Positions 27,989 to 49,326 of a stretch of 64,000 bases of DNA are shown in pieces. The position numbers were made by a program, and so were the translations under genes. The notes beneath the pieces were generated by a model. It saw only the letters and a program-made list of their open reading frames with translations. It did no database searches and was not told the DNA's origin. The stretch covers positions 620,001-684,000 of the forward strand of contig NZ_LT632547.1 in the NCBI RefSeq assembly GCF_900119695.1, given 5' to 3'. Positions within the stretch are counted from its first letter, which is position 1. Each line of letters begins with the position of its first letter. This DNA comes from Actinomyces urinae. GTDB lineage: Bacteria > Actinomycetota > Actinomycetes > Actinomycetales > Actinomycetaceae.

Positions 27989-29287
27989 TTAGCCTTGGGC
28001 GTCACCGATTACGAGGCGCGGCGTGCCCTTCCACAGCTGCGGGTCGGTTACGCGACGGCCGTCAAACAGCACCTTGATGCCCGGTAGATCAGCCGGGGTG
28101 ATGGTCTTGTATTCGGGGTGGTCTGCCTGCACAATGGCGGCGTCAACCGGCTCGCCCATGTTGTAAGCGTCCCAGCCGAAGCCAGCGAGTTCCTCATCGG
28201 TAAACATCGGGTCATGCACAAGCACTTTTGCACCGCGCTTACGCAGTTCATCGACAGTTGCAAAAACGCCAGAGAACGCGGTTTCTTTCACCTTGCCACG
28301 GTAGGAGGCACCAAGCACAACAACTGTCATTTTTTCAAGGCCACCAAGCACGCTCTCGAGGCGCTTAACGGAGTATTCCGGCATGGATGCGTTGAAGGTG
28401 CGAGCGGTGCGAACGATCGAGGCGTCCGGGTCGGTGGATAGGTAGAGGCGCGGGTAGACCGGAATACAGTGGCCACCAACGGCAATACCGGGGCGGTGAA
28501 TGTGTGAGTAGGGCTGGGAGTTGGAGGCGTCGATGACTGCTTGCACGTCGATGCCCTGCTGGTCTGCAAATACTGCAAACTGGTTTGCAAGGCCGATGTT
28601 GACGTCCCTGTACGTGGTTTCAGCGAGCTTTGCCATTTCTGCAGCTTCAGCGGAGCCGAGATCCCACACGCCATTGGGGCGATTTAGGTCGGGGCGCTCA
28701 TCGAATTGAAGAACTGATTCGTAGAACTCAATGGCCTTCTTAGTGCCTTCTGCGCTTAGGCCACCAACAAGCTTAGGGTAGCGGCGAAGGTCGGCGAATA
28801 CGCGGCCGGTGAGTACTCGTTCTGGGGAGAACACGAGGTGGAAGTCTTTGCCTTCTTTAAGGCCGGAGATTTCTTCAATCATGGGCTTCCAACGTCCGCG
28901 CGTGGTGCCGACCGGTAGCGTGGTTTCGTAAGAGATGAGCGTGCCTGGCGTAAGGTTTTCTGCCAAAGACTTGGTGGCGGCGTCCATCCAGCCGAAGTCC
29001 GGCTCCCAAGTTTCGTCATTGACGAAGAGCGGAACTACCAGCACAACGGCGTCCGCGCCCGGGATTGCATCGGAGTAGTCGGTGGTGGCGCGCAGCTTTC
29101 CTGCGGGAACCAGCTGCGAGAGCTTTTCCTGTAAGTGTGCTTCGCCAGGGAACGGCTCTTTAGCATCGTTGATCATCTGAACGGTCTTTTCGTTCACGTC
29201 AACGCCGACTACTTCATGGCCAGAATCTGCGAACTGAACGGCAAGGGGCAAACCGATTTTCCCCATGGCGACTACGGCGATACGCAT
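27989..29287 (-). CDS. UDP-HexNAc 6-dehydrogenase (WecC/WbpA type)
   Basis: A 432-residue NAD-dependent dehydrogenase that oxidises C6 of a UDP-N-acetylhexosamine to the uronic acid. It has the Rossmann motif AVVAMGKIGLPLAVQFADSG, the central KLAETTYRDVNIGLANQFA and the catalytic-Cys motif GGHCIPVYPRLY. I use ATG 29287 with GGAGAAG upstream; the residues before it are not family-like. It heads the minus-strand glycan operon and is divergent from the 2-epimerase gene. As WecC it would act on UDP-ManNAc; as WbpA, on UDP-GlcNAc. The presence of wbpB/E/D homologues favours the second. Confidence 0.93.
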   Translation of the reverse strand: MRIAVVAMGKIGLPLAVQFADSGHEVVGVDVNEKTVQMINDAKEPFPGEAHLQEKLSQLVPAGKLRATTDYSDAIPGADAVVLVVPLFVNDETWEPDFGWMDAATKSLAENLTPGTLISYETTLPVGTTRGRWKPMIEEISGLKEGKDFHLVFSPERVLTGRVFADLRRYPKLVGGLSAEGTKKAIEFYESVLQFDERPDLNRPNGVWDLGSAEAAEMAKLAETTYRDVNIGLANQFAVFADQQGIDVQAVIDASNSQPYSHIHRPGIAVGGHCIPVYPRLYLSTDPDASIVRTARTFNASMPEYSVKRLESVLGGLEKMTVVVLGASYRGKVKETAFSGVFATVDELRKRGAKVLVHDPMFTDEELAGFGWDAYNMGEPVDAAIVQADHPEYKTITPADLPGIKVLFDGRRVTDPQLWKGTPRLVIGDAQG

Positions 29288-29415
29288 GCGCTTCTCCATT
29301 TCAAAGAATTTCAAGAATCAATTCATCGCCAGTTTAACACCGCGCTTCGTTCGGCTTGCTGCCGCAATGCGTGCTTCTCCGCTTTCACAAGCTCGTGAAC
29401 CTGTTTGGCACACCT

Positions 29416-29471: not shown

Positions 29472-30542
29472 ATGAAAATCATGTCTGTGGTGGGCGCGCG
29501 CCCTCAGTTTGTAAAACTTGCTCCGATTGCGCATGCCTGTGAGCGTGCTGGTGTGGAGCACGTCATTGTTCACACCGGTCAGCACTACGATCCAATGCTC
29601 TCGGATGTGTTCTTCGAGGAGTTGAACATTCCGACCCCCGATGAACACCTTGGGGTTGGTTCTGGCTCGCACGGCGTTCAGACTGGCGCGATGCTCGCCG
29701 CAATGGATGAAGTGATATTGAAGCATGAGCCGGATTGGGTGCTGGTCTATGGCGATACCAACTCCACTCTTGCGGCTGCACTATCTGCGGTTAAGCTCCA
29801 CTTCCCTATCGCTCATCTTGAGGCTGGTTTGCGCTCTTTTAATCGGGAGATGCCAGAAGAAATCAACCGCGTGCTTACTGACCATGCTGCTGATCTACTG
29901 CTTGCCCCCACCGAGGTTGGGGCGAAGCATCTTGCCGATGAGGGCCTGGCTGACCGCACCGTGGTTGTGGGCGATGTGATGACGGATGTGCTGATGGAAA
30001 CCCGCGCTGAGGTTGCGGACAAGCCGAGCCCGATTATGCAAGAGTTTGGTTTTGCTGAGGGCGAGTATTCGTTGGCTACGATTCACCGCCCCGCTAACAC
30101 TGACACGAAGGAGCAGCTGGACGCGGTGCTTGATTCACTAGGCAAGGTAGACCACCCCGTGGTGATATTGGCGCATCCTCGCCTGGTGGCCAAAGCCAAG
30201 GAGCACGGTCTGACAATTGAGCGGGGGAATTTAAAAGTTCACGCTCCGCTCGCCTACCCTGATCTGGTTGCGTCCACTATGCATGCTCGCGGCGTGATTA
30301 CCGATTCGGGCGGTTTGCAGAAAGAAGCGTTCCTACTACGCACGCCGTGCACCACGGTTCGCCCACAAACGGAGTGGGTAGAAACTGTTGAAGTTGGCTG
30401 GAACGTCCTCGTAGATGCCGGCTCGAAGCTAGTTGAAGCCGCGTCGCGTCCACGTCCGGCCGATACAGATAGCGTCCCATACGGTGATGGCCACGCAGCC
30501 GAGCGCGTGGTTGAGGTACTGCAAGAAGCACTTTTATCGTAA
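29472..30542 (+). CDS. wecB: Non-hydrolysing UDP-GlcNAc 2-epimerase (WecB/WbpI type)
   Basis: A 356-residue enzyme that inverts C2 of UDP-GlcNAc or of a related UDP-diacetamido uronic acid. MSVVGARPQFVKLAPI opens the protein, HTGQHYDPMLSDVFFEEL and HLEAGLRSFNREMPEEINR carry the substrate-binding and catalytic residues, and ITDSGGLQKEAFLLRTPC is the nucleotide-binding motif. All are intact. The ribosome-binding site is AGAGG. It is divergent from the dehydrogenase and 10 bp upstream of the C5-epimerase. WecB and WbpI cannot be told apart by motif; the context of wbpB/E/D homologues makes WbpI-type substrate use possible. Confidence 0.93.
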   Translation: MKIMSVVGARPQFVKLAPIAHACERAGVEHVIVHTGQHYDPMLSDVFFEELNIPTPDEHLGVGSGSHGVQTGAMLAAMDEVILKHEPDWVLVYGDTNSTLAAALSAVKLHFPIAHLEAGLRSFNREMPEEINRVLTDHAADLLLAPTEVGAKHLADEGLADRTVVVGDVMTDVLMETRAEVADKPSPIMQEFGFAEGEYSLATIHRPANTDTKEQLDAVLDSLGKVDHPVVILAHPRLVAKAKEHGLTIERGNLKVHAPLAYPDLVASTMHARGVITDSGGLQKEAFLLRTPCTTVRPQTEWVETVEVGWNVLVDAGSKLVEAASRPRPADTDSVPYGDGHAAERVVEVLQEALLS

Positions 30543-31379
30543 GGCCGCAGGTATGAACATTAAGCTGAAACGGCGACATGCCGTAGGAATGACGCTCGCA
30601 ATCCTTTTGGCGACCGTATTCACTTTTATTCTTTCAGTTGATTACATAAGTGAAGTGGCGACGCGCGCCCGAACAAGCGATCCAGTGATGACACAGATTG
30701 CGAAGCTAAGCGAATATGGAAAATCTGCATACGACGGCGGGAAGATACGGGACGACCTACTCGAATCTGAACCAATGGATGATCGCGGAGTGGTGATCAC
30801 AACGGTTCATGGCGAAGAGGTCTACCACCCTGTAAACACCGCTTGGTTCATCCTTTCGATGCAAGACTCTTTTGAGGCATCTAATAACCCTGAGTACCTA
30901 GAGCACGCTCGAATCAATACGCAATACCTACTAGACGGGGCGGAGCGCGCTGACACCGGAACCTGGTTTGCATACCACTTCGAGCATGCTCCCGGCGGGT
31001 TAGACAATGGAAATCCCTGGGTTTCAGGAATGGCACAGGGGATGCTTTTATCTGTGCTCTCTAGAATGTATGAGATCACAGGCGAGCAACAATACAAGGA
31101 CGAGGCTACGGGAGTTTTCCAAACATATTTCGCCCCGAAGTCTGACTCGGATTACTGGTTTGTGAACCAAGATGACTGTAATTGGGTTGGCCCCTGCCTC
31201 TACTTCGAGGAATATCCGTCTCGTCAAGAGCAACAAAACTCTCACGTGGTGAATGGCTTTATTTATTCCATTTGGGGCGTTTATGACTATATGCGAGTAT
31301 TTCAAGATCCCGACGCTCTGTCCCTCTTCAATGCCAGCGTGACCACGTTAGAAAAATCATTTGACCGTTATAGGTATCC

Positions 31380-31388
31380 GGGGGGGGG
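31380..31388 (+). repeat. Homopolymer of nine G inside a coding region
   Basis: Nine G in a row within the C5-epimerase gene. It is the longest G/C run I noticed in the window. Tracts of this length are prone to slipped-strand mispairing and also to base-calling errors. Confidence 0.9.
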
Positions 31389-31536
31389 CAAGCTGGTACG
31401 CAATGAACCAATTTGGACGTGATGCTTGGGGGCGCCCCGAGGGCTACCATATTGGGGTTACGAAGCAGCTCGAAATAACATCGGCGATAACAGGAAGCAA
31501 GATTTTAGCTGATCAAGCGCGAACACTCTCTCAGGA

Positions 31537-31564
31537 CTGCTCGTCACAACCTTGTGACGAGCAG
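31537..31564. terminator. 28-bp palindrome at the end of the C5-epimerase gene
   Basis: CTGCTCGTCACAA (31537-31549) and TTGTGACGAGCAG (31552-31564) form a perfect 13-bp inverted repeat with a 2-nt centre, ending 6 bp before the end of the gene. No T-run follows, so it may be a factor-dependent terminator, a binding site or a scar. Confidence 0.45.
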
Positions 31565-31689
31565 CAATAGCGGGAGCATTACGGATAGAATCTGCGACGT
31601 CGGTTTGAGGGCGCACTGGTGATGGGCTAGTGGTAGCCACGCGGCCAACAGGCCTTCACAGTACTGAATATAGCTTTAGCTAAGGCGGA

Positions 31690-34249
31690 ATGATGCGGGT
31701 GAAAGAAACTCCAGGGACTCACAAGATTTCCTTATTTTTTGCAAGCGCTCTTGGAGCGGTGCTAGTACACCTCGCTGCGCGTCTAAAAGGCTAGAGTCTA
31801 TCCTTTCGGAACGTACAGTGCCAGGATCCATGATTTTGGGGCCCAATACCTGCCTTTCTATTCGAGGCTTAGAGATCAGATTCTCCAAGGAAGTGGACTT
31901 TCAGGGATGACTTTCTCATGGACTTGGGATTAGGCGTCTCATCGATTCCGGACCACGCCACCTAGCTTGGCGATCCAATAACGCCTCTTGCTCTTCTGCT
32001 GGTTCCAAGCCATCAGATCCTTGCGGCCTTGCTCATCAGTATTTTGTTGAAAGTTGCCTTAGCAGCTGGCTTCATGCGGCTCTTGATAAACTATTTGAGG
32101 CGAGATTTTACCGGCATCATTCCGCTGATCATTTCCGTTGGATACGCCTGCTCTAGTTGGGTGTTTGAACTGGGTCAGTTCGTCCCCCAATGGCTCGATG
32201 TTCTGTACGGGATTCCGCTACTCTTTTTTGCCGCGTTAGAAATGCGCAAACCAAGACCCAGGTGGATCCTGGCCGGCGGCGCCGTGGCTCTAGTGTGGTG
32301 GACAAATTATTACGTTGCCTTTATGGCTAGTATCGTGGCGGGCTTATTTTCCATCACCGTGACATTAGGGCTGGGTGGTTTTAAACAAGGTATAAAAAAT
32401 GTGGCGCGTTTCGGTGCAGTTGGCGTCCTGGGTGTAACCATCACTGCTCCTATCCTAGTACCGACTATTAATGTCCTGTTCCAAGGTGTAGGGTACGAGT
32501 CCGTAGAGAAACTCATTACTTTCGGAAAGTCAGTTGCTGGAATCCGAACGCTGCCGTTCACGGCCACGGTTACCTACGCACCGCCGCTGTACACAGGCTT
32601 TGTCGTGTGAGCTTTTTTTCGCCTTCTTCTTTACTCGGGATTTGACTTGGCGTTTCAAAATAGTCTGGCTGATCACAAGTGCGGTGCTGCTTTTGTCTCT
32701 GACTAATATGAAGGCACAAATCGTTTGAAGCCTGTTCCAAACTCCGCATTGTACGCCGTATCGCTGGGTTTTTGTCATCACCGCATGGATGGTAGTGACG
32801 GCCGCTTTAGCATGGGAATCGAAATCCGGTAACAACAGGTTTAATGACGGAGAACAACTGGACGGCCCGAACTGGCTTCAGATTGGCGCGGTTTCACTAT
32901 TGGGTATCGGCGCTTCATTGCTTCTATACCTGCGCGCGCGTGCCGTTAGCTTTACGTTGCCCAGTCTATGGACTCTCACCACATATATGTTTATTCTCTG
33001 CGCCTTGTTATTCGCCCTATTGATTGTCAGATGGTATCCAGTACGCAAGACAGCAGTAATTCTTGGACGCACATCTGCAGCATTGCTATTGATAGCAGTT
33101 AGTTTTGAATATGTTGATACGGGCGCTCTTGTAGATGAGAAAATCATGCCTCGAATCGAAATAGTTAATACTGACGTTGAAGCCAAACGTATCGAATTGA
33201 GTGAACGTCTCACCGCCGATGAGTGGCCTATCCACCGGCTAGGTTGGATACACGACGACTTCACAGATCCTAAGGCTTCTGACAACCTATCTGCCCGCTA
33301 CATTTACCCTGGAACTGATTACTACTCGACGACGGTCACGTCCCAATACCCCGATACTCTCACTACTTTGGGCATGGTGACGAGCAGCGGGGCGCGTTTC
33401 TCGTGGTTACCAGAAGATTCCATTCTCAAGGGCGTACTTTCAGTCGCATCCAAAGATGACCTACCCGCACTTCCGATGGCTCGGGTCTATCCTGACCAGT
33501 TCACCCCGAACGACATCACAATGCCCAAGGAATATGAAAGCCGTTCATCCCTTAGTAACGCACCCAATCTGTACCATTTTGAGCCTATTAGCGTTAAAAA
33601 CGCCGCAACGCGTGCAGAGGAAACAGAACTGCGCGACGGTGAAACCTACTTGTTTTCCACGTCATGTAAGCCGGGAACAACAGTATTTGCCGGAGTGCAT
33701 CGCTATGACAGGATTTCCGACGCCCCCACGGGATAACACATCGAGGGAGTAAACGGTGTTGCCGCTTCGTCAGACGGCCTGCTGGGCGAGATAGGCCGAG
33801 CCACCGAAGCTACCCAAAGTTTCAAGCTACATATGGCAGCGGACCGGACGCTAAATGCAAACCTTTTCGTTGGTTGTGCTGATATTGACGCATACCTGCG
33901 CGGCACAGAGAAAATTGTGGACCCATCTGGCCTTGTGATTAAGGCAGAAGAGGTAACGGCTACTTTTACGCAGCCAGTTTCTGGGGAATTCGTCTTGGCT
34001 ACCCCGGCGGTTGATGGGTGGTCTTGCTCCGCTGATAGCAAGCCGATTTCGGTGTCGAGTCGAGCCGGCTTGCTATCCGCAACCGTTTCGGGTTCAACGA
34101 CGGCACACTGCAGTTTCACTCCCCCACTGTTTAGAGCTGGAATAGGGATATCCGCGCTGGCTCTCCTCCTGCTATGTATGCCGAGTGTGGTAGGTAGGCT
34201 GCGCAGGCATCAAACACATTCGGCTGAGGGAGATCAGCCCACTGCGTAA
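31690..34249 (+). pseudogene. YfhO-family membrane protein, decayed
   Basis: Reading across frames reconstructs an approximately 850-residue YfhO/GT-C-like membrane protein: an N-terminal helix from ATG 31690 (ISLFFASALGAVLVHLAARL), the loop RVYPFGTYSARIHDFGAQYL with SGMTFSWTWD, repeated helices, an outer domain and a last helix before TAA 34249. I count at least six lesions: frameshifts near 31790, 31932 and 32608, and in-frame stops TAG 31963-31965, TGA 32726-32728 (at a likely Trp) and TAA 33734-33736. Intact YfhO proteins are thought to glycosylate teichoic acids or other wall glycans. It follows the C5-epimerase by 119 bp, so both may have belonged to one transferred unit. Confidence 0.85.
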
Positions 34250-36426: not shown

Positions 36427-37623
36427 TCATTTCGCAGATCTATCGGCAATGTAATTAGCCACAGCCTTCCCCACTGCCTTCATCGATCGGTTCTCTTCCA
36501 CCCATTTGTGCAGGCGCTGCGGCTCTCGCGTCTCACGTGTTTCGTTAAGCAGAGTCTCCATAGCCTCAAGCACCGACTCCTCACAATAGGGCACACAAAT
36601 GCCGAGATCATTATCTTCAATATCGTCTATTGCCGGCCCAACGCCAGCATAGAGAACAGACGTTCCACACGATAGAGCGGTTAGTGCTTTAGTGGGGTAT
36701 GCGAGGTCATAACCGATTCCCGGCTGAATAGAGACACAGCTGGCAATAGCCTCGCTCTGCCAACTAGCTGCTTCCTGGGGTGGAACGGTCTTTTGGATCA
36801 CTAGGGGCTCATAGTCCGCACCCGCCACTTGCGCCCTCTTCGCAAGCCTGTCCGCGATTTTCTCAAGCTCAGGGACGCTGTCTCCCCTCGTCAGATAAAG
36901 GAACTGAACGTCGCGGTCTGGATTCCAGAACTTCTCAAATGCGTTCGCAAACAATTCAGCGCCCTGCCACCCAGAGGCTGTACCCGCATAGATGAAGTAT
37001 GGACGCGAGACCCGCATGAGATTCTTCTCTTCTGGAGTAAGCCTTGGAGCCTCGGGATTGAAAAGCTCAGTATCTGCACCATTTGGCACAACTGCCACCG
37101 ACTTAGCACCCATTTCCTGCACTCTTTGCGCCACGCCGTCGGATACGGCGATGCAACCGCGTGCCCCCCTGACGGCAAACGTCTCGAGGTTTCGTACCGT
37201 CTTCTTCACGAAGCCGGGAACATCCATGCTGTCTGTAGCATCAGACCACACATCCGCCGCATACCAAAAATATGGGATACGGCGAATCGTGCATGCCACG
37301 CGCGCAACCGTTCCAGTAGTTGGAGGCGGCTCAACCAGGATGAAGTCGACTTTCGGCATTGTGAGTAGCTTCAAGAAAGCTTGGATATCAAACGAGGCAT
37401 ATGACAGGTAACCCTTGACGTAGCCTTCTTTGTCACGCAAAACAGGGACCCGACAGATCGTGCTATCTGGTTCAGCCTCAATACCTACGGGTGGTTCAGT
37501 AGTAAACACGCGGACCTTCGATCCTGCTTCTTCCAACCCGCGTTTTACCGCTTTTAAGCGTAGCGATGCTGCGGACGGTTCTGGTGCGAAAATCCGGCTA
37601 ACAATGAGCCCCGTAAGAATCAT
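36427..37623 (-). CDS. GT4 family glycosyltransferase
   Basis: A 398-residue GT-B transferase of the WbuB/WcaI-like kind. The N-domain has ILTGLIVSRIFAPEPSAASL (membrane-proximal donor side) and the C-domain has YFIYAGTASGWQGAELFANA and the donor-binding SIQPGIGYDLAYPTKALTAL. The more usual E-x7-E motif is replaced by a Lys-containing version, as in other WbuB-like proteins. It overlaps the upstream GT4 by 4 bp (ATGA). Such enzymes often transfer an amino sugar onto a lipid-linked precursor; the actual sugar is not known. Confidence 0.83.
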   Translation of the reverse strand: MILTGLIVSRIFAPEPSAASLRLKAVKRGLEEAGSKVRVFTTEPPVGIEAEPDSTICRVPVLRDKEGYVKGYLSYASFDIQAFLKLLTMPKVDFILVEPPPTTGTVARVACTIRRIPYFWYAADVWSDATDSMDVPGFVKKTVRNLETFAVRGARGCIAVSDGVAQRVQEMGAKSVAVVPNGADTELFNPEAPRLTPEEKNLMRVSRPYFIYAGTASGWQGAELFANAFEKFWNPDRDVQFLYLTRGDSVPELEKIADRLAKRAQVAGADYEPLVIQKTVPPQEAASWQSEAIASCVSIQPGIGYDLAYPTKALTALSCGTSVLYAGVGPAIDDIEDNDLGICVPYCEESVLEAMETLLNETRETREPQRLHKWVEENRSMKAVGKAVANYIADRSAK

Positions 37624-38774
37624 GATCCCATTTCCTCAAATGCGCAAAGAGCTTGTTCATAAACATCGGTGTGGAGTTTTGCGTACGCATCTCCTGAGAA
37701 CCTCTCGTAGGCCACCCGCCTTACCTCTTCTGGTTCTTTAATGACACTGCCCGAGGCAAAATCACGCATCGCATCTACCAGCGCATCGTGATCGTCGATC
37801 GGTACCAGAATCCCGGTTTCCTCTTGGACCATGTGTGCACCACCAAAACTTGCTGATGCAATTACGGGAATACCCAACGCTTGTGCTTCTGCAAAAACCA
37901 TGCCAGCTGTTTCACTTGAAGATACCAAAACCAGTACATCCTTAGTGGAAAGAACTCTCGGTAGTTCATCGCGACTGATTTGGCCAAGCACATTCACCGC
38001 ACCAGCGACCCCAAGTTTTCGGGTGAAAGCGCGCACCTCATCGCACCGAGCTTCAGACCCGCCGATAATGTCTAAAGAAGCGTCATACCCTTCATTGAGA
38101 AGGTCTTTAAATCCGACGATAGTTTCTTCAACACGCTTCCAACGGTCCAAGCTAGAAATGTGAACGAACTGAGTTTTGCCAAGCACGCTTTTATGCAAGG
38201 GGTAGTCATAAAACATTTGCGGAACAGGTAGCGTTCCAACACCGAATTCTGCTCCGTATTTTCCCCCAAGTTCCTTCGCGAAGTTTGAAGACACCGCAAG
38301 CCTAAAGTCGGCATCTTGAACCGCACGTTTAATGGCTCGAAAACGCGGATTGCTCTCGTTGGCCTCTAGTGTTGATCCTCTGTGCTCCGTAACGCCAAAC
38401 GGGATATTCCAATATGTAGCCATCACTTTGGCTGTGAGGATACCGGGGAACACTGATTGCGCATGAATAATTTCCGGCTTGCCCCAACGCTTTGCATAGG
38501 CTCGAGCAGCCTCAGTCGCATGGCGTTTAATAAGAGTGTAGTCTCCAGGCAGAATTCCGCGCGGTACGGTTTTAACCGTCTGGCGTATTACACGCTTGTC
38601 TCGATCTATCTGAAGCTGGCGGTTCCCCTGCTGCCAAAAGCTCTTCGGGTTTAGGTAGTAGACGCCTACCTTATGCCCATGCTCTTGAAGAACCTCTATG
38701 GCCTCTTCAAAAAAATGCCCATTAAGCGGGAACTCGGGGCTTGGGTACCATGACGGCGTCCATAAAACGTGCAT
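37620..38774 (-). CDS. GT4 family glycosyltransferase
   Basis: A 384-residue retaining GT-B glycosyltransferase. It opens with VLWTPSWYPSPEFPLNGHFF, followed by EIIHAQSVFPGILTAKVMAT and GVTEHRGST in the acceptor domain. TQFVHISSLDRWKRVEETIV and LVSSSETAGMVFAEAQALGI (E-x7-E) form the donor site. It overlaps its neighbours by 1 and 4 bp, so it is translated as part of the operon. It would add one sugar of the repeat unit; specificity cannot be read from sequence. Confidence 0.87.
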   Translation of the reverse strand: MHVLWTPSWYPSPEFPLNGHFFEEAIEVLQEHGHKVGVYYLNPKSFWQQGNRQLQIDRDKRVIRQTVKTVPRGILPGDYTLIKRHATEAARAYAKRWGKPEIIHAQSVFPGILTAKVMATYWNIPFGVTEHRGSTLEANESNPRFRAIKRAVQDADFRLAVSSNFAKELGGKYGAEFGVGTLPVPQMFYDYPLHKSVLGKTQFVHISSLDRWKRVEETIVGFKDLLNEGYDASLDIIGGSEARCDEVRAFTRKLGVAGAVNVLGQISRDELPRVLSTKDVLVLVSSSETAGMVFAEAQALGIPVIASASFGGAHMVQEETGILVPIDDHDALVDAMRDFASGSVIKEPEEVRRVAYERFSGDAYAKLHTDVYEQALCAFEEMGS

Positions 38775-39856
38775 TATTGAACCTTCATCAACAAATTAGC
38801 AACAGCTTGTGCACGTGCACGCCAAGTATTATTCGGCCTGTCGGCAAGCACTTTATTTGTGTGCGTGACTATTTCTTGTCCATCTTGGTTCAAGCGTTCA
38901 AACAATTTCACCAGTGTTTGCTCTTCATTGGGAACGGTCCATCCCCAGTTGTTACGCGAAATAACCTTAGCTGCCAAAGTCCCGTCCGTAGCGATTATCG
39001 GTTTGCCGCGGCCCACATACTCATAGAGTTTGAAAGGCACAGCGAACGACCAGTAGTGAGTGGGATCAACGGCAATCACCGCTACATTCGCACTCGCGTA
39101 GTAGTCATCAAGATCGCTACCTTTGGCGTGCACTACCCGCACGTTGGATTCATGAATGTCGTATTCATGCTCAACGGCCTTCCAGCGATCCTTATCTGTA
39201 CAAATCGTGAGTGTAACCGTGGGAACGCGCTGAGCGGCTCGCACCAACTGGTGCAAGTTGTAATGAGCACCGATACCGCCAACATAGAACATGTTTAGAG
39301 GTGAGGGGGACGCTGGCACGTCTACCGGTTCACCGCCCGGAGGTAACTCTTTTACCTTTGCAACGCGCAGTTGAGGGATCTCTTGTGCCATTTCAAAAGA
39401 GGGCACAAAAATTATGTCGGTGTAACGCTTATAGAGTGCTAACTCATACCTGTACAGTGCACGCATTCCTGTTGCGAGTGGTTTACCCACTCGCTCCTCG
39501 TATTCGTCATACACCCAGTACAAGTCGCGATAAAAAACCGACGTAGGCACACCATACTTTTTCAGCGTACGAAAAATTTGCGCATCTAATAGCAAATGCG
39601 GAAAGTGATTGGAATCCCCAATCATCGCAGGGATAGTCGCGGATTCTGAATACATGAACGCGAACTGTTCCCCGTTGGCTAGCTTCGCCTTCAGCTTGCG
39701 GAACTTCGCTCTTCTAACCGAGCTCTGTCCCGTCAAGTCAAAAACTTCAAAGCCCGCATCTTTGAATGCTTGAAGCATCCTTCGCGGTCTGATCGCAGAA
39801 GCGGAGACAGACTCATAGTTGAGCTCATACGCGGCATGGTAAATCATCCTTACCAA
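38774..39856 (-). CDS. Glycosyltransferase, GT-B fold
   Basis: A 360-residue GT-B protein. MIYHAAYELNYESVSASAIR opens an N-domain of the kind seen in capsular-polysaccharide transferases; the C-domain has NMFYVGGIGAHYNLHQLVRA, NVAVIAVDPTHYWSFAVPFK and LYEYVGRGKPIIATDGTLAA, the last being the nucleotide-sugar site. It is more divergent from classical GT4 than its neighbours. It starts 2 bp after the upstream GT4 ends and overlaps the downstream gene by 1 bp. Confidence 0.8.
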   Translation of the reverse strand: MVRMIYHAAYELNYESVSASAIRPRRMLQAFKDAGFEVFDLTGQSSVRRAKFRKLKAKLANGEQFAFMYSESATIPAMIGDSNHFPHLLLDAQIFRTLKKYGVPTSVFYRDLYWVYDEYEERVGKPLATGMRALYRYELALYKRYTDIIFVPSFEMAQEIPQLRVAKVKELPPGGEPVDVPASPSPLNMFYVGGIGAHYNLHQLVRAAQRVPTVTLTICTDKDRWKAVEHEYDIHESNVRVVHAKGSDLDDYYASANVAVIAVDPTHYWSFAVPFKLYEYVGRGKPIIATDGTLAAKVISRNNWGWTVPNEEQTLVKLFERLNQDGQEIVTHTNKVLADRPNNTWRARAQAVANLLMKVQ

Positions 39857-39858
39857 TG

Positions 39859-40959
39859 TCAGAAGCCTCGCTTCTCAATGCCGCGTTTGTACAGATCAAA
39901 ATATGAGGTAGCAATCGTGTGTGGCTCAAAACTATCGCCAACCGTTGCAGCAATGCGCTGCGCATCCCAATCAGCGGTATTTTCGAACAGGTCAACAACC
40001 GCCTCGGCATATCCGCCGGCATCCTGCACGCTCATGAGCCTGCCAATCGCAGGATCAATGTACTCCCCATGGCCGCCGTTAGCTCCTACAACTAGCGGAC
40101 GCCCGTTAACAATCGCTTCGGCAGCGGCTACGAAGAAGTTCTCACCTTGAGTCGGGCCAATAAAAATATCAGCCTCTGCCAGCTCCTTTTGCACCCCGGT
40201 TTTGTCTACCGTTCCCGGGAACTTCGCATTCACACCTAGTTCAGTAGCAAGCGAGATGGCTTCGTCACGCAACGGTCCATCCCCTAGCCAAGTTAATGTG
40301 GCCTCGAAACCGCGCTTTCTGAGCTCATCCAACACTCGCACCGCGAGCAGAGGATCCTTACGCTCAACTAGCGCTCCAGTAGAGATCAAACGGATAACTC
40401 CATCACGCTCACGCCGCGCTATCACCTTTTCGGGCGATGGAACCTGACATGGGATAACCTCAACCGGTTTTGAACCGCGGATGCGACGTAGCGGCTCGGC
40501 TAGATAATCGCAGACGGCAACAGCAACATCTGGAAGTAATTCCATCTTCAAGAGAGCGGGGCGAAGTTTTTGCCATGACGCGGGCAGAGTTTGCGGGTTG
40601 GTTATCCCAGACCAGTGCTCGGTGTGCACCCAAAACTGCTTGGGGCGACCGAACACAAACGGCTCGACAGCGGAGATTGCCTGGGTATGTACCACATCAA
40701 AATCTCTAATTAATGGCGCTATTTCAAGACGTGCGCGCACGATGTCTAGCGGATTAGAGGTGCTCATCGGAACCCGAATGGTTCTAATCCCCGAAACAAC
40801 CGTCTTGCGGCTTCCGTCATCTTCGTGGGGAGGTACTAAATGCACAACGCTTAAGTCCACGCCCGCTTCACACAACGCTTGACTATCTTTCAGAACAAAC
40901 GCGCCTGAACTCGGGTTCACCTGCGTGGGAAACCACGGCGTAACAATGCCAACCCGCAT
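39859..40959 (-). CDS. GT4 family glycosyltransferase
   Basis: A 366-residue retaining GT-B transferase. MRVGIVTPWFPTQVNPSSGA and FDVVHTQAISAVEPFVF mark the N-domain; VIRLISTGALVERKDPLLAV and FIGPTQGENFFVAAAEAIVN (E-x7-E) mark the donor site. It is the first gene of the five-gene minus-strand operon (40959 to 34335), divergent from the asparagine-synthase-like gene, with 130 bp between them that must hold both promoters. Sugar specificity unknown. Confidence 0.88.
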   Translation of the reverse strand: MRVGIVTPWFPTQVNPSSGAFVLKDSQALCEAGVDLSVVHLVPPHEDDGSRKTVVSGIRTIRVPMSTSNPLDIVRARLEIAPLIRDFDVVHTQAISAVEPFVFGRPKQFWVHTEHWSGITNPQTLPASWQKLRPALLKMELLPDVAVAVCDYLAEPLRRIRGSKPVEVIPCQVPSPEKVIARRERDGVIRLISTGALVERKDPLLAVRVLDELRKRGFEATLTWLGDGPLRDEAISLATELGVNAKFPGTVDKTGVQKELAEADIFIGPTQGENFFVAAAEAIVNGRPLVVGANGGHGEYIDPAIGRLMSVQDAGGYAEAVVDLFENTADWDAQRIAATVGDSFEPHTIATSYFDLYKRGIEKRGF

Positions 40960-42714: not shown

Positions 42715-44013
42715 CTAGACGGAATCCTCAGTGGCGAGTTCGCGTCGATCAAATCGGCGGGCTGCGAAAACAGACATTACGGTCATTGCAACCAAGAATG
42801 CAGCCATAATTGCTCCCATCACGTAGACGGTTCCAAGCAGATCAAGTGGAGACAGAAGCAACCAGGTCAATGGACCGATCGTGTAAAGGATCGAGTAGAT
42901 CAACAACCAGTGTTGCGTGCCGGTGACAACAAACATCGTCGAAATTGGCGACGTAATGAGTAGCATCGCCATCCATGGGATAAGAGCACGTGCAAAATAA
43001 CCCGACTGGCTAAAATCTGCTCCGAACAAAATCGGTAGCAGCCACGGCGCTACCAGCCACAGAAGAGCGAACGGAACAACTCCAATCAAAATTGCACGTT
43101 TGATTACGTTCTTAACTTCCGGCAACATTTGGCCTGGCTCGACCGTAGAGAGCTTTTGGAAAAATACCTGTGAAACAGCTGAATTGATCAGCATCACGGG
43201 GACATTTACTACCTGGTTCGCGATGTTGTACTCGCCAAAATCGCCAATGGAGACTCGCCCAATAAGCAGATTAATGCCGTTGATTCTTACCGCATCAATC
43301 AGCACATTCGGGCCATTCAATACAGGCATCTTCCAATGCTTACGAGCAAGTTTGCGCATTGGGCGAGCCCCGGACACATCTAGCGTGCGCAAATCCTTAG
43401 CCCTAATCCCAAGATTAAAGAAAGCGTACGCCTGTCCAACAATCTGGCCGCCCACCAGGCCGGGAAGGGTATGGATACCTGCCCAACCAAAAACCACCTG
43501 ACCGCTACTGGTTCCAACCTGTTGCACCACACGGTTTTTAGCAATGGTCTTGTAATCAGTTTTCCGGTTGTACCAATACTGAAACAAAGTTGCGCCCGCC
43601 ATAAAAAATGTGGTCAGGCCAGCTAGAGGCATCCAACTTGCAACCGTTTCAGAATAAAGATTGGCTACCACATCACGTAGAGGGAACGCCAACACAGTTA
43701 TTACTAGCGAATTGATCGCGATCAGGCGCAGCGCCAACATGGCTACTACTTTTGCGTCACGATCATCTTTTTCAAGCATCAACGCCATGTCATAGCGTCC
43801 CGCAGCAATCGCCACTGCAATGGCAACTATTGAGTTGAAGGTCCCCAACTCTCCTAACGCTTCACGCCCATAAAGCCGGGTAATGATCATCATCATGAAG
43901 AAGACAACCAACTGTGCAAGTGCCGTACCAGTCACAAGAGTCAAGACGTGACGAAGGAACGGAGAAGAAGCCGCGACACTCTTCACATACGAACTAATCC
44001 TGTCGAACAACAA
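42715..44013 (-). CDS. Wzx-type oligosaccharide flippase
   Basis: A 432-residue membrane protein with about 12 helices, starting with a family-typical amphipathic part and helix (LTLVTGTALAQLVVFFMMMI) and RLYGREALGELGTFNSIVAI. It belongs to the MOP/polysaccharide-export flippases that move undecaprenyl-linked repeat units across the membrane. So the window has a flippase as well as an ABC exporter. TTG 44013 is the first possible start; a second TTG (44010) is better spaced from the GGGGGAG site. It converges on the amidotransferase gene. Confidence 0.87.
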   Translation of the reverse strand: MLFDRISSYVKSVAASSPFLRHVLTLVTGTALAQLVVFFMMMIITRLYGREALGELGTFNSIVAIAVAIAAGRYDMALMLEKDDRDAKVVAMLALRLIAINSLVITVLAFPLRDVVANLYSETVASWMPLAGLTTFFMAGATLFQYWYNRKTDYKTIAKNRVVQQVGTSSGQVVFGWAGIHTLPGLVGGQIVGQAYAFFNLGIRAKDLRTLDVSGARPMRKLARKHWKMPVLNGPNVLIDAVRINGINLLIGRVSIGDFGEYNIANQVVNVPVMLINSAVSQVFFQKLSTVEPGQMLPEVKNVIKRAILIGVVPFALLWLVAPWLLPILFGADFSQSGYFARALIPWMAMLLITSPISTMFVVTGTQHWLLIYSILYTIGPLTWLLLSPLDLLGTVYVMGAIMAAFLVAMTVMSVFAARRFDRRELATEDSV

Positions 44014-44098: not shown

Positions 44099-45085
44099 CT
44101 ACAGCTTCACAGCCTCACCAGACGCGGCCGAATCCAGCATCGCCTGAATCACCTTCATAGTCTGTAGGCCCTCACGCATCGTCACATGTTCCGTACCCGT
44201 GCCAAGGATGGCATCACGGAAATGCTCATGCTCAACACGTAGCGGCTCACGCTTAACCAGAGCAAAACGCGTAACCTCGCCCTCAGACACGCCGCGGAAT
44301 GCCGCGATCTGATCCCACTCAACCGGGAAACGACCATTCTCGTAGAACGTCAAATCAGACATCGCCGTATCAGCCACAAGAGCGCCACGCTCGCCCGTAA
44401 CGATCGTAATGCGATCTTTAAACGGAGTTAGCCAGTTCACCAGGTGGCTCACCAACACGCCGTTCTTAAAACGGCCAGTAGCCGAGACCATGTCTTCAAA
44501 CTCGCGGCCCGAACGGTAAGCCGTCTGAGCATAAATTGACTCGTACTCAGAGCCCGCAACCCACGCCGCCAAATCCACGTCATGCGTTGCCAGATCCTTC
44601 ACCACGCCCACATCCGAAATGCGAGCCGGGAACGGGGACTGACGGCGAGTCACAACCTGGTATACGTCGCCGAGGTAACCCTCCGAAACCAAGCGGCGCA
44701 TCTCCAGCAACGCTGGGTTACAACGCTCCACGTAGCCAACCGCGCCAACTACGCCAGCCTCGTCAAATGCCTTGACCATGGCCTCGCCCTCTTCAAGGGT
44801 GGAGGCCAGCGGCTTTTCAACCAGCGTGTGCACACCGGCCTCAGCCAGCTTCATCACGGCCTCGAAATGGTAAGCGGTAGGTACAGCCACAACGGCGGCA
44901 TCAATACCGACCTCGAGCATCTGCTCAACGCCCGGCAGAACCTCCATGCCGCGAGCTACATCAAAGCGATCGCCACCCGGATCCGCGAGCGCAACTAGTT
45001 CAAAGCCCTCCGTCTCACGCGCATTTCGCACGTGGTGGCGGCCCATGGAGCCAATGCCGAGAACACCAACTCGAATATCAGACAT
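44099..45085 (-). CDS. wbpB: UDP-GlcNAcA 3-dehydrogenase, Gfo/Idh/MocA family
   Basis: A 328-residue NAD(P)-dependent oxidoreductase. The N-terminal Rossmann motif is RVGVLGIGSMGRHHVRNARE, the Gfo/Idh motif is HTLVEKPLAS (catalytic Lys region), and YVERCNPALLEMRRL and LATHDVDLAAWVAGSEYES are the substrate-side motifs. In the WbpB reaction the C3 hydroxyl of a UDP-N-acetyl uronic acid is oxidised to a ketone for the aminotransferase. It overlaps the aminotransferase gene by one base, as expected for enzymes of one pathway. The family is broad, but this gene trio is characteristic. Confidence 0.88.
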   Translation of the reverse strand: MSDIRVGVLGIGSMGRHHVRNARETEGFELVALADPGGDRFDVARGMEVLPGVEQMLEVGIDAAVVAVPTAYHFEAVMKLAEAGVHTLVEKPLASTLEEGEAMVKAFDEAGVVGAVGYVERCNPALLEMRRLVSEGYLGDVYQVVTRRQSPFPARISDVGVVKDLATHDVDLAAWVAGSEYESIYAQTAYRSGREFEDMVSATGRFKNGVLVSHLVNWLTPFKDRITIVTGERGALVADTAMSDLTFYENGRFPVEWDQIAAFRGVSEGEVTRFALVKREPLRVEHEHFRDAILGTGTEHVTMREGLQTMKVIQAMLDSAASGEAVKL

Positions 45086-46188
45086 TAAGCACCAGCCTTA
45101 GCAAGAGCATTCACGGCCTCAACAATGCGATCCAAATCAGCCTGAGAGAGCGACGGGTGAACCGGAAGCGAAACCACGGTCTTCGCTGCTTCCTCAGTTA
45201 CCGGAAGATCGAGGCCCGGAGCGTAGGGAGCGAGGGAGGGCAAACGGTGGTTTGGAATCGGGTAGTAAACGCCCGAACCAACCTGGTACTCATCACGCAG
45301 AGCTTCCATGAAACGATCGCGGTCAGTATCAACCACGCGGATCGTGTACTGGTGGTAAACGTGAACAGCGCCCTCGGCAACAGCCGGAACAACAACGCCC
45401 TCAAGGTTTTCTGAAAGGAACTTCGCGTTCTCCTGACGCTTCTGCGTCCACGCTTCAACCTTCTTCAGCTGCTCGCGACCAATCGCGGCGTGAATATCAG
45501 TCATGCGGTTGTTCAAACCAACCAGCTCATTTGCGTAGCGCTTCTCCATACCCTGGTTGCGTAGCAAACGGCTATTGCGTGCCACCTCGGGATCCGTGGT
45601 GGTGATCATACCGCCCTCACCGGCCGTCATATTCTTGGTCGGGTAGAACGAGAATGCTGCGAACGTACCGAACGTTCCGACCTTCTTACCATCCAGTGAA
45701 GCACCGTGAGCCTGCGCAGCGTCCTCAAACAGCATGAGGCCGTGCTTGTCCGCAATCGTCTTCAGATCATTCATAGGAGCCGGATGGCCATAGAGGTGGA
45801 CCGGCATAATCGCCTTAGTGCGCTCCGTGATCGAAGCCTCCACGGACTTCGGATCCAAGCAGAAATGCTCAAGATCGATGTCAGCAAACACCGGCTTGGC
45901 ACCTGCAATAGCAACAGAGTTGCCCGTAGCAGCGAACGTAAACGACGGTACGATGACCTCATCGCCCGCACCAATACCAGAAGCCAACAGGCCAATGTGA
46001 AGAGCGGAAGTACCGGAATTCACGGCAATCGACTCGGCCCCCGGCGTCATCTGCTGCGTGAATTCCTCTTCAAAAGCAGCTACCTGCGGGCCCTGCGCAA
46101 CCATGCCAGAGCGAAGGACTGCAGTAACAGCTGCAATCTCTTCCTCACCAATCAATGGTTTCGCTGCGGGAATCATCTCTCGGGTCAT
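45085..46188 (-). CDS. wbpE: DegT/DnrJ/EryC1 sugar aminotransferase
   Basis: A 367-residue PLP-dependent enzyme. ESIAVNSGTSALHIGLLASG binds the cofactor phosphate, MLFEDAAQAHGASLDGKKVG has the conserved Asp and His, and FSFYPTKNMTAGEGGMITT carries the PLP-binding Lys. WbpE-type enzymes aminate the 3-keto sugar made by WbpB, giving a 3-amino uronic acid. It overlaps both neighbours by one base. Confidence 0.92.
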   Translation of the reverse strand: MTREMIPAAKPLIGEEEIAAVTAVLRSGMVAQGPQVAAFEEEFTQQMTPGAESIAVNSGTSALHIGLLASGIGAGDEVIVPSFTFAATGNSVAIAGAKPVFADIDLEHFCLDPKSVEASITERTKAIMPVHLYGHPAPMNDLKTIADKHGLMLFEDAAQAHGASLDGKKVGTFGTFAAFSFYPTKNMTAGEGGMITTTDPEVARNSRLLRNQGMEKRYANELVGLNNRMTDIHAAIGREQLKKVEAWTQKRQENAKFLSENLEGVVVPAVAEGAVHVYHQYTIRVVDTDRDRFMEALRDEYQVGSGVYYPIPNHRLPSLAPYAPGLDLPVTEEAAKTVVSLPVHPSLSQADLDRIVEAVNALAKAGA

Positions 46189-46790
46189 TACTCGCTAACC
46201 TCTCTTAGCTCACTATCGCTAATCTGTTCAAAAACCTGCCCAGTCTTTGGGCACTTGAAACGATTTTCACTACCTTCAACCGGTTGTAGCCTCACGCCAC
46301 TTTGCCCAACCCAACCAATCCGGCGGGCTGGAACACCAGCAACCAACGCAAAATCTGGCACATCCCTCGTGACAACCGAGCCTGCCGCAACAGTGGCCCA
46401 CTCGCCAACCGTCACAGGAGCCACACACACCGCGCGAGCACCAACAGAAGCTCCACGCTTTAGCGTCACGCCCACGTGATCCCAATCAGATGCACTCTTT
46501 AGCGATCCATCCGCATTAATCGCACGCGGGAACAAATCATTAGTCAAGACAGCAGCCGGGCCAACAAAAACGCCGTCGGCAAGCTCAGCGGGCTCATAAA
46601 CCAGGGCATAATTCTGCACCTTGCAGTTATCCCCCATCTTCACGCCCTCGCCAATATAAGCGCCGCGGCCAACAATGCAGTTCTTTCCGATCTCAGCATT
46701 TTCGCGAACCTGCGCGAGGTGCCAGATTGAGGTTCCCTCGCCAACCTTCGCCTCAGCTGAAACGTCTGCACTATCGACAATTCTCGGCAT
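46188..46790 (-). CDS. wbpD: N-acetyltransferase, left-handed beta-helix (WbpD-like)
   Basis: A 200-residue hexapeptide-repeat acyltransferase. SIWHLAQVRENAEIGKNCIV, GAYIGEGVKMGDNCKVQNYA and GVFVGPAAVLTNDLFPRA are close to the WbpD pattern, and VPDFALVAGVPARRIGWVG is the family C-terminal signature; a short Cys-containing tail follows (RFKCPKTGQVF). It would acetylate the 3-amino group made by WbpE to give the 2,3-diacetamido sugar. It is the first gene of the wbpDEB operon and divergent from the DPM1-like gene. Confidence 0.92.
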   Translation of the reverse strand: MPRIVDSADVSAEAKVGEGTSIWHLAQVRENAEIGKNCIVGRGAYIGEGVKMGDNCKVQNYALVYEPAELADGVFVGPAAVLTNDLFPRAINADGSLKSASDWDHVGVTLKRGASVGARAVCVAPVTVGEWATVAAGSVVTRDVPDFALVAGVPARRIGWVGQSGVRLQPVEGSENRFKCPKTGQVFEQISDSELREVSE

Positions 46791-48006: not shown

Positions 48007-49326
48007 GTGAACGATCGCGAAACCAATCATCTCCAGGAAGAGGCCGTTCGCAACCTGGTACGAGACCAGGGCAAGCGGACCCTCACCAGTGGCCCCAAAC
48101 CAAACAGGCGCCGCCCGCGTTCAGCACAGAAGCCTCGGCACACCGTGTTCCGATTCAAACGGCACACTCTGCGAACCATCGGCGCAGCCCTTTTTGCCAT
48201 ATTACTTTTTGTTGGCACCTCGGCCGGGCTCTTGTACTACGACCTATCAAACCGGGTTGCAAAGTCTGAACTACAAGTCGAACAATTTGCGCCCCGTAAC
48301 GAAGCACGTCCGCCCATGGACAGCTTCGATGGGCGCCCTGTGAACATCCTTCTACTTGGAACAGACTCTCGCGTTGGTGAAGGAAACTCCCGATACGGAG
48401 ACGATGAAGACACCTCAATGCGAGCAGACGTGACAATCATCGCGCACATCTCGCAGGACCGCTCACGCGTACAGCTGGTATCCATCCCTCGCGACACTGT
48501 TGTGGACATCCCCTCCTGCGTCCTCAAAGATGGAACCGAAACATACCCCCAAACTGGACAAATCAACTGGGCCATGTCCATCGGCTCCGAATACAACCAA
48601 GAAAACCTGGACGCCGGCGTGGGATGTAGCTGGAGGACCGTAGAAGAGCTAACCGGCATCCCCATCGACGGATTCATACTATTTGACTTCGCCGGGTTCG
48701 AAAGAATTATCAACGCCCTGGGCGGCGTGGATATGTGCTTCGAAGAAGACCTATACGACGAGGCTGCAGAACTCGATATATCCGCAGGATGCCACGTACT
48801 CAACGGTCACGACGCCCTCGCCTACGCCAGAGCGCGGAAGGAAGTTGGAAACGGGTCCGATATTTCTCGCATTGGCCGTCAACAAGAACTAATGGGGCGT
48901 ATCTTCCACACTGCGCAATCACAAAACTTGCTGACAGATTTCCCGAAACTCTACGCTTTCCTGTCCGAATCCCTGGACATCATCAAGACGTCTTCAAACT
49001 TCTCGCGGATAAACACGTCCATGGGGCTCGCGTACTCACTATCCGGGCTTTCAGGCGATGGATTGCAATTCGTAACCATGCCACTTACCGAAGCTCCTTG
49101 GGACCCCAACCGAGTGATCCCCACGTGGCAAGCAGACGAGCTTTGGCAATCGATCCAAGAGGATGCGCCGCTGCCATCCAACATTTGGATCACCGACTCT
49201 GAAGGCAACGTGGTATTCCTCGAAGAATCTTCCGAAACCAGTTCCAGCGAGGACGGACTTGAAGACTCCGATGGCTCTAACGATGAGTATTTGAGGGACA
49301 GCGATGGTGAGGGAGAAGGCCTGTGA
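48007..49326 (+). CDS. LCP family glycopolymer ligase
   Basis: A 439-residue LytR-CpsA-Psr protein. It has a basic cytoplasmic N-terminus (about 1-52), one membrane helix (about 55-75) and an outer LCP domain (about 110-370) with NILLLGTDSRVGEG, ADVTIIAHISQDRSRVQLVS, IPRDTVVDIP and GHDALAYARARKE, where the Asp and Arg residues bind the polyprenyl pyrophosphate and Mg. The tail is Ser/Asp/Glu-rich. LCP enzymes transfer lipid-linked wall glycans onto peptidoglycan. It starts with GTG 48007. Confidence 0.93.
   Translation: MNDRETNHLQEEAVRNLVRDQGKRTLTSGPKPNRRRPRSAQKPRHTVFRFKRHTLRTIGAALFAILLFVGTSAGLLYYDLSNRVAKSELQVEQFAPRNEARPPMDSFDGRPVNILLLGTDSRVGEGNSRYGDDEDTSMRADVTIIAHISQDRSRVQLVSIPRDTVVDIPSCVLKDGTETYPQTGQINWAMSIGSEYNQENLDAGVGCSWRTVEELTGIPIDGFILFDFAGFERIINALGGVDMCFEEDLYDEAAELDISAGCHVLNGHDALAYARARKEVGNGSDISRIGRQQELMGRIFHTAQSQNLLTDFPKLYAFLSESLDIIKTSSNFSRINTSMGLAYSLSGLSGDGLQFVTMPLTEAPWDPNRVIPTWQADELWQSIQEDAPLPSNIWITDSEGNVVFLEESSETSSSEDGLEDSDGSNDEYLRDSDGEGEGL

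What the first reader, a model, noticed from the sequence alone, without database searches (positions are those of the whole stretch)
30553..31570. Uronyl C5-epimerase switched out of frame by a G9 tract
The gene is complete on both sides of the break and needs the loss of just one G from a run of nine (31380-31388) to read through to a stop at 31570. Homopolymer G tracts in surface-glycan genes are classic phase-variation switches. The enzyme would change the shape of uronic acids in an exposed glycan, so on/off switching could vary the surface. A fresh mutation or sequencing error is also possible, and the neighbouring YfhO gene is clearly decayed.
Basis: partly seen in the sequence, partly recalled or inferred. 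Interest (0 to 1): 0.75.

Follow-up and report, generated by a model that had tools for sequence, protein, structure and literature searches.

The report
G-tract switch in sugar-flipping enzyme gene
A bacterium of the Actinomyces family carries a cell-surface sugar-modifying enzyme whose gene is put out of reading frame by a run of nine Gs, most likely as a reversible on/off switch, and some relatives show separate runs of this kind in the same gene.

Summary
A G9 run (31380-31388) separates two conserved frames of one C5-epimerase gene: ATG 30553 to a stop at 31422 (289 aa), and a second frame open to 31570. Mapped on human GLCE, catalytic E499, Y500 and N510 lie before the tract and Y560 and Y578 after it, so the product as assembled should be inactive. 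The tract is the window's only G/C run of 7 or more. The genome has 11 G tracts of 8 or more where about 0.4 are expected by extrapolation; others lie in hsdS, a sortase-pilin gene and upstream of surface-protein genes. MutS is absent, NucS present. The same gene carries a C8 (open) in Actinomyces ruminis and a C9 (shifted) in A. glycerinitolerans with dN/dS 0.19, and a C7 frame break in Bowdeniella nasicola. The gene directly follows a UDP-GlcNAc3NAcA 2-epimerase homologue, so ManNAc3NAcA in a teichuronic-type wall polymer is the likely substrate (inferred). Best reading: a slipped-strand contingency switch, OFF in this assembly (0.7). Length variation within the strain could not be tested, and the neighbouring YfhO gene is decayed, so fixed loss (0.2) stays open. 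Known kind of switch; a target enzyme I did not find reported as phase variable.

The parts
30553..31422 (+). 5' frame of the C5-epimerase gene: 289 codons, N-terminal membrane anchor, PF06662 match
   Evidence: ribosome-site-like AAGG overlaps the wecB stop (by eye)
31380..31388 (+). G9 tract, the proposed switch
31389..31570 (+). 3' frame of the same gene, with SWY and YH motifs, to the stop at 31568-31570
31207..31215 (+). EEY, residues 219-221; E220 and Y221 align with human GLCE E499 and Y500
31252..31254 (+). N234, aligns with GLCE N510
31397..31399 (+). Tyr codon (SWY) aligned with GLCE Y560, in the 3' frame
31445..31447 (+). Tyr codon (GYH) aligned with GLCE Y578, in the 3' frame
29472..30542 (+). 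WecB-family enzyme, best PDB match UDP-GlcNAc3NAcA 2-epimerase; ends 10 nt before the epimerase ATG
27989..29314 (-). nucleotide-sugar 6-dehydrogenase, nearest to UDP-ManNAc dehydrogenases
44099..45085 (-). Gfo/Idh/MocA oxidoreductase (proposed WbpB-like step)
45085..46188 (-). DegT-family aminotransferase (proposed WbpE-like step)
46188..46790 (-). hexapeptide acetyltransferase (proposed WbpD/WlbB-like step)
36427..40959 (-). four glycosyltransferase genes of the surface-glycan cluster
42715..44013 (-). polysaccharide flippase-like protein
48007..49326 (+). LytR-CpsA-Psr protein (attaches glycopolymers to the wall; role recalled)
31690..34249 (+). decayed YfhO-type membrane protein gene, pieces in several frames
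   Evidence: start approximate, by eye

Best explanation
This is a contingency (phase-variable) gene. Slipped-strand mispairing in the G tract changes its length during replication, which moves the last fifth of the C5-epimerase gene in or out of frame. As assembled it is OFF: translation from ATG 30553 stops at 31422 and lacks two catalytic tyrosines. When ON, a membrane-anchored enzyme outside the cell would flip C5 of uronic acid residues in the wall glycopolymer made by the surrounding cluster, most likely D-ManNAc3NAcA towards L-GulNAc3NAcA. Cells of one population would thus show two versions of the polymer. Shown: tract, frames, conservation, catalytic residues on both sides, tract excess, gene neighbours. 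Inferred: reversibility, substrate, surface effect.
For: Both frames conserved. Catalytic residues E, Y, N before and Y, Y after the tract. Only break in the gene, at the only G/C run of 7 or more in 64 kb. Genome-wide excess of long G tracts. Other tracts in hsdS between HsdM and HsdR, just after the ATG of a sortase-pilin gene whose body lies in another frame, 58 nt and 281 nt upstream of two surface-type protein genes. MutS not found (control rings in 11 of 14) and NucS found; NucS does not correct short indels (PMC8228993, passages). Same gene: C8 open in A. ruminis, C9 shifted in A. glycerinitolerans, dN/dS 0.19 over 299 codons; C7 break in B. nasicola in the same wecB-epimerase order. 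Runs of 7 or more G/C are enriched in the epimerase gene among 80 named loci: 6 of 17 runs in 10.8% of the DNA, P 0.007. Actinobacterial precedent: Bifidobacterium pili (PMC9187656, passages).
Against: No length polymorphism within the species could be tested. The adjacent YfhO gene is decayed. The tract is not at this place in relatives; a run of 8 or more is in the gene in 2 of 80 named loci and these two share ancestry, so the enrichment counts them twice. In the same genome one tract sits in a gene that looks decayed (S9 peptidase) and others are intergenic, so not every tract marks a switch. In Propionibacterium acnes tract variation followed clades, read as slow change (PMC4746626, passages).
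Confidence: 0.7

Rival explanations
1. Fixed loss: the G tract took a frameshift once and the gene is now dying with its YfhO neighbour.
For: YfhO next door is broken in several places. Only one species-level genome is held. One other G9 of this genome lies in a decayed-looking S9 peptidase gene.
Against: No stop and no catalytic loss elsewhere in the gene; the 3' frame still matches relatives; break sits exactly in a slippery tract, unlike the YfhO breaks, where no G/C run of 7 or more exists.
Confidence: 0.2
2. Assembly or base-calling error: the true tract has another length and the gene is simply intact.
For: G tracts are hard to sequence (PMC9187656, passages).
Against: Long tracts of varied length occur in this assembly, including an in-frame G8 in hsdS, so no uniform error is seen; many long genes of the window are open. 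Even then a long G tract would remain a switch candidate.
Confidence: 0.06
3. Transcriptional or ribosomal slippage on the G run makes some full-length enzyme from the shifted gene, so the tract is a dosage device and not a genetic switch.
For: Poly-G runs are known slippage sites (recalled; RNA slippage is discussed in passages of PMC9187656).
Against: Not tested; no conserved tract at this place in relatives as a programmed site would predict.
Confidence: 0.04

Closest known systems
G-tract pilus switches of Bifidobacterium breve UCC2003 (PMC9187656)
   Same: Actinobacterium, intragenic G tract, frame joins or separates two ORF halves, replication slippage; seen in passages
   Different: Target is a pilin; length variation was measured there, not here. 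The window genome has its own sortase-pilin gene with a G8
Homopolymer tracts of Gardnerella (PMC11287997) and Propionibacterium acnes (PMC4746626)
   Same: Actinobacteria with many long G/C tracts in and before genes (passages)
   Different: No C5-epimerase target was seen in the passages; P. acnes tracts were read as slowly changing
D-glucuronyl C5-epimerase GLCE (PDB 6hzz, 4pw2) and the bacterial RED65_08024 enzyme
   Same: C-terminal catalytic domain, all five catalytic residues aligned
   Different: PDB match covers chain residues 345-510 of 6hzz only; the window protein lacks room for the N-terminal domains; substrate likely differs
Teichuronic acid-like polymer of Streptomyces griseus with ManNAc3NAcA (PMC13274773)
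   Same: Same set of enzyme classes: dehydrogenase, oxidase, aminotransferase, acetyltransferase, 2-epimerase (section 9 read)
   Different: No C5-epimerase or phase variation is mentioned in the main text by the terms searched
Phase-variable hsdS with poly-G (Neisseria)
   Same: The window genome's hsdS tract resembles it (Neisseria papers seen as listing only)
   Different: Different locus, shown here only as context

Membership tests
phase-variable contingency locus (homopolymer type) | long homopolymer inside the coding frame, beyond chance | tested here: met
phase-variable contingency locus (homopolymer type) | both sides of the tract conserved so that length alone decides the frame | tested here: met
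phase-variable contingency locus (homopolymer type) | tract length differs between related genomes with matching frame state | tested here: inconclusive
   Met for another tract in the same gene of two Actinomyces species; this tract has no counterpart in the 80 named relatives
phase-variable contingency locus (homopolymer type) | reversible length change within a population, with a phenotype | not testable with these tools
   no reads, no second strain held
D-glucuronyl C5-epimerase family (PF06662 / GLCE) | PF06662 match above the curated cut-off | tested here: met
   79.8 bits against 23.3
D-glucuronyl C5-epimerase family (PF06662 / GLCE) | catalytic E499, Y500, N510, Y560, Y578 equivalents | tested here: met
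   present but split over two frames
D-glucuronyl C5-epimerase family (PF06662 / GLCE) | activity on GlcA (as opposed to another uronic acid) | not testable with these tools
   neighbours point to ManNAc3NAcA
UDP-ManNAc3NAcA pathway | 2-epimerase of the GlcNAc3NAcA type | tested here: met
   8sxv 362 bits against 284 for the UDP-GlcNAc 2-epimerase 4neq
UDP-ManNAc3NAcA pathway | 6-dehydrogenase, 3-oxidase, aminotransferase, N-acetyltransferase | tested here: inconclusive
   Dehydrogenase nearest UDP-ManNAcA type; acetyltransferase nearest 3mqg; oxidase and aminotransferase are of the right families but below NCBIfam cut-offs, and WbpE ranks seventh by E-value for the aminotransferase

The most novel reading that the evidence does not exclude
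C5-epimerases of wall glycopolymers are recurrent, independently evolved phase-variation targets in the Actinomyces family, and here the enzyme flips ManNAc3NAcA to L-GulNAc3NAcA within a teichuronic-type polymer, so that a population shows two stereochemical versions of a polymer class that in Streptomyces is the receptor of lectin-guided umbrella toxins.
Probability: 0.3. Interest if true: 0.75.

Novelty: new member of a known kind. Interest (0 to 1): 0.55.

Why it matters
Phase variation usually adds or removes a sugar, an O-acetyl or a whole surface protein. Switching a polymer C5-epimerase would change sugar shape and charge geometry along a chain without changing its composition, which bulk sugar analysis would tend to miss. 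ManNAc3NAcA polymers are receptors for lectin-type umbrella toxins in Streptomyces (PMC13274773), so such a switch could be a defence against toxins or phages. It also points to a G-tract repertoire (hsdS, pilin, surface proteins, glycan enzyme) in a group for which my searches found no phase-variation report (listings, some passages).

Tried and rejected
Close relatives by single protein: the first genome-contig scan gave 20 pattern stretches but no relative; a profile scan gave 156, best 80 kept. Congeners as comparators: 4 of 11 genus genomes (own included) have a match, but the three others are 27-35% identical proteins with open frames of 623-799 aa, a different type, so no species-near tract comparison was possible. 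NGF in place of NGH in the window protein looked like decay; human and zebrafish enzymes have NGF too, so it was dropped. A regex check of runs at the PGG motif recognised only 3 of 80 loci and is not used. The sugar names searched together gave no paper. Arthrobacter MAG L062 also has a C7 that shifts its ATG frame, but a TTG start downstream could serve, so I count it as weak. L120 and L076 have 7-base runs within open genes, against a view that every run breaks the frame. The Actinomyces gene lies beside redox and tRNA-editing genes, no glycan cluster, which weakens the idea of one shared role. No structure was predicted.

Full report
Observation. The window holds a G9 run at 31380-31388. 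The gene's ATG is at 30553; its frame ends at 31422 after 289 codons. A second frame, read apart, continues to the stop at 31570.

Is it one gene? The 5' frame matches PF06662, D-glucuronyl C5-epimerase C-terminus, 79.8 bits against a cut-off of 23.3, but only up to profile position 135 of 188. The 3' frame supplies the rest: against 17 relatives' frames it gives E 2.6e-12 with L023 and E 2.9e-10 with L024; of the two other frames one gave nothing and the other at best E 0.26. A profile of 12 relatives (chosen from the 17 loci; near-duplicates and poor fragments were left out) matches human and zebrafish GLCE in the PDB at E about 3e-21 and 2e-21. The catalytic residues of GLCE are E499, Y500, N510, Y560, Y578 (PMC13308652, passages). 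Counting along the alignment, all five fit one offset of 90. In the window, E220, Y221 and N234 lie before the tract; the Tyr codons at 31397-31399 and 31445-31447 lie after it, in the other frame. PDB entry 6i01 carries F in place of the last tyrosine. So the 289-aa product should be dead, and the unread part is what the enzyme needs.

Is the tract special? It is the only G/C run of 7 or more in the window. Exact G runs in the genome, both strands: 98 of length 6, 6 of length 7, then 4 of 8, 6 of 9 and 1 of 13. The tail stops falling, which is the mark of kept tracts: 11 of 8 or more against 0.39 expected by extrapolation. A gentler assumed fall-off weakens this (P 0.012 at ratio 0.2 for 8 or more), but 9 or more stays at 7e-5.

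What else do the tracts touch? G8 in hsdS, in frame, with HsdM and HsdR around it; a second species of the genus, G002, has the same tract at the same place. G8 24 nt after the ATG of an LPXTG pilin gene with a sortase gene beside it; the ATG frame and the pilin frame differ, so it reads as OFF (start by eye). G9 58 nt before a 240-aa gene with a sortase-like tail (by eye; no Pfam match) and G9 281 nt before a 1759-aa Rib-domain protein. G13 between TTGTTC- and TATAAT-like boxes (by eye). The others are near toxin-antitoxin-like genes, in a decayed-looking S9 peptidase gene, or between genes. All 11 genomes of the genus have G tracts of 8 or more, 1 to 17 matches each; I looked at 27 of the 68 matches outside G000, and many are intergenic.

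Repair background. MutS was not found in G000 (control found it in 11 of 14 genomes) and NucS was. NucS does not correct short indels (PMC8228993, passages), so tracts should be free to slip.

Relatives. Of 80 named C5-epimerase loci (best 80 of 156), a G/C run of 8 or more lies in or within 400 nt of the gene in two: Actinomyces ruminis L070 (C8, frame open from its ATG) and A. glycerinitolerans L078 (C9, ATG frame stops after 64 codons). They equal L029 and L030 of genomes G041 and G022. ATG to tract is 138 nt in both; 16 synonymous and 10 nonsynonymous changes over 299 codons give dN/dS 0.19, so the gene is kept although one copy reads OFF. In Bowdeniella nasicola (L055), where the epimerase directly follows wecB as in the window, the ATG frame and the body frame part at a C7. 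Runs of 7 or more are enriched in the gene: 6 of 17 in 10.8% of 906 kb, P 0.007; counting the Actinomyces pair once weakens this. The G9 of the window itself has no counterpart at its place among them. So tracts arose separately.

Cluster and substrate. The gene begins 10 nt after wecB. That WecB is nearest to UDP-2,3-diacetamido-2,3-dideoxy-glucuronic acid 2-epimerase (362 bits against 284 for the UDP-GlcNAc 2-epimerase 4neq). The dehydrogenase is nearest the UDP-ManNAcA type; the hexapeptide protein is nearest acetyltransferase 3mqg (identity as WlbB recalled). Oxidase and aminotransferase families fit but are not diagnostic. Together they fit UDP-ManNAc3NAcA synthesis as described for Streptomyces teichuronic acid (PMC13274773, section 9). 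Of the 80 named loci, WecB homologues lie in 13, the dehydrogenase in 7, DegT in 7, hexapeptide in 7, Gfo in 5, and all five in three Arthrobacter loci, L049, L051, L062. I infer that the enzyme acts on ManNAc3NAcA in the polymer, giving L-GulNAc3NAcA; GlcA is not excluded.

Mechanism. Slipped-strand mispairing alters the tract, the last fifth of the protein moves in or out of frame, and the wall polymer is flipped at C5 or not. Against this: no population data, the decayed YfhO gene next door, and P. acnes, where such tracts change slowly (PMC4746626, passages).

Novelty. G-tract switches are known in Actinobacteria. 'phase variation' with 'C5-epimerase' gave 3 papers; in the one opened, in passages, the switch is icaC and not an epimerase; the other two were not opened. 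'phase variation' with 'Actinomycetaceae' gave 4 papers, seen as listing. I found no report of a phase-variable C5-epimerase; the library lacks most subscription papers.

Noticed in passing
L043:8497-8504 (C3:485496): G8 inside hsdS between its specificity domains, in frame; same tract at the same place in congener G002 (L129): candidate phase-variable restriction specificity.
   Followed up: partly
L044:8012-8019 (C3:991011): G8 right after the ATG of an LPXTG pilin gene next to a sortase gene; start frame and pilin frame differ as assembled.
   Followed up: partly
L042:9764-9776 (C3:453763): G13 between TTGTTC-like and TATAAT-like boxes, by eye; a promoter-spacer tract with no clear gene on that strand.
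   Followed up: no
L041:9815-9823 and L047:4909-4917: G9 tracts 58 nt and 281 nt before genes for a 240-aa sortase-type protein and a 1759-aa Rib-domain protein.
   Followed up: partly
L055:5866-6810: Bowdeniella nasicola C5-epimerase: ATG frame and body frame part at a C7, same wecB-epimerase order as in the window.
   Followed up: yes
L070, L078: Actinomyces ruminis C8 and A. glycerinitolerans C9 in the same epimerase gene, frame open and shifted respectively.
   Followed up: yes
L157:1500-1508: G9 in a DNA-methyltransferase-like gene of congener G002, frame ending just after the tract (by eye).
   Followed up: no
L045:8956-8963 and L150:1500-1508: G8 and G9 directly at the stop of the same small antitoxin-like gene in G000 and G002: the same tract at two lengths.
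   Followed up: no
window 31690-34249: YfhO-type gene broken in several frames, no long homopolymer at the breaks.
   Followed up: partly
window 25964-27985 and 34335-36407: Two DUF6541 membrane proteins flank the wecB-epimerase-YfhO block on the other strand.
   Followed up: no
G000:C3 ends: The same spacing of G6 runs at both ends of contig C3 suggests a repeat of about 5 kb there.
   Followed up: no
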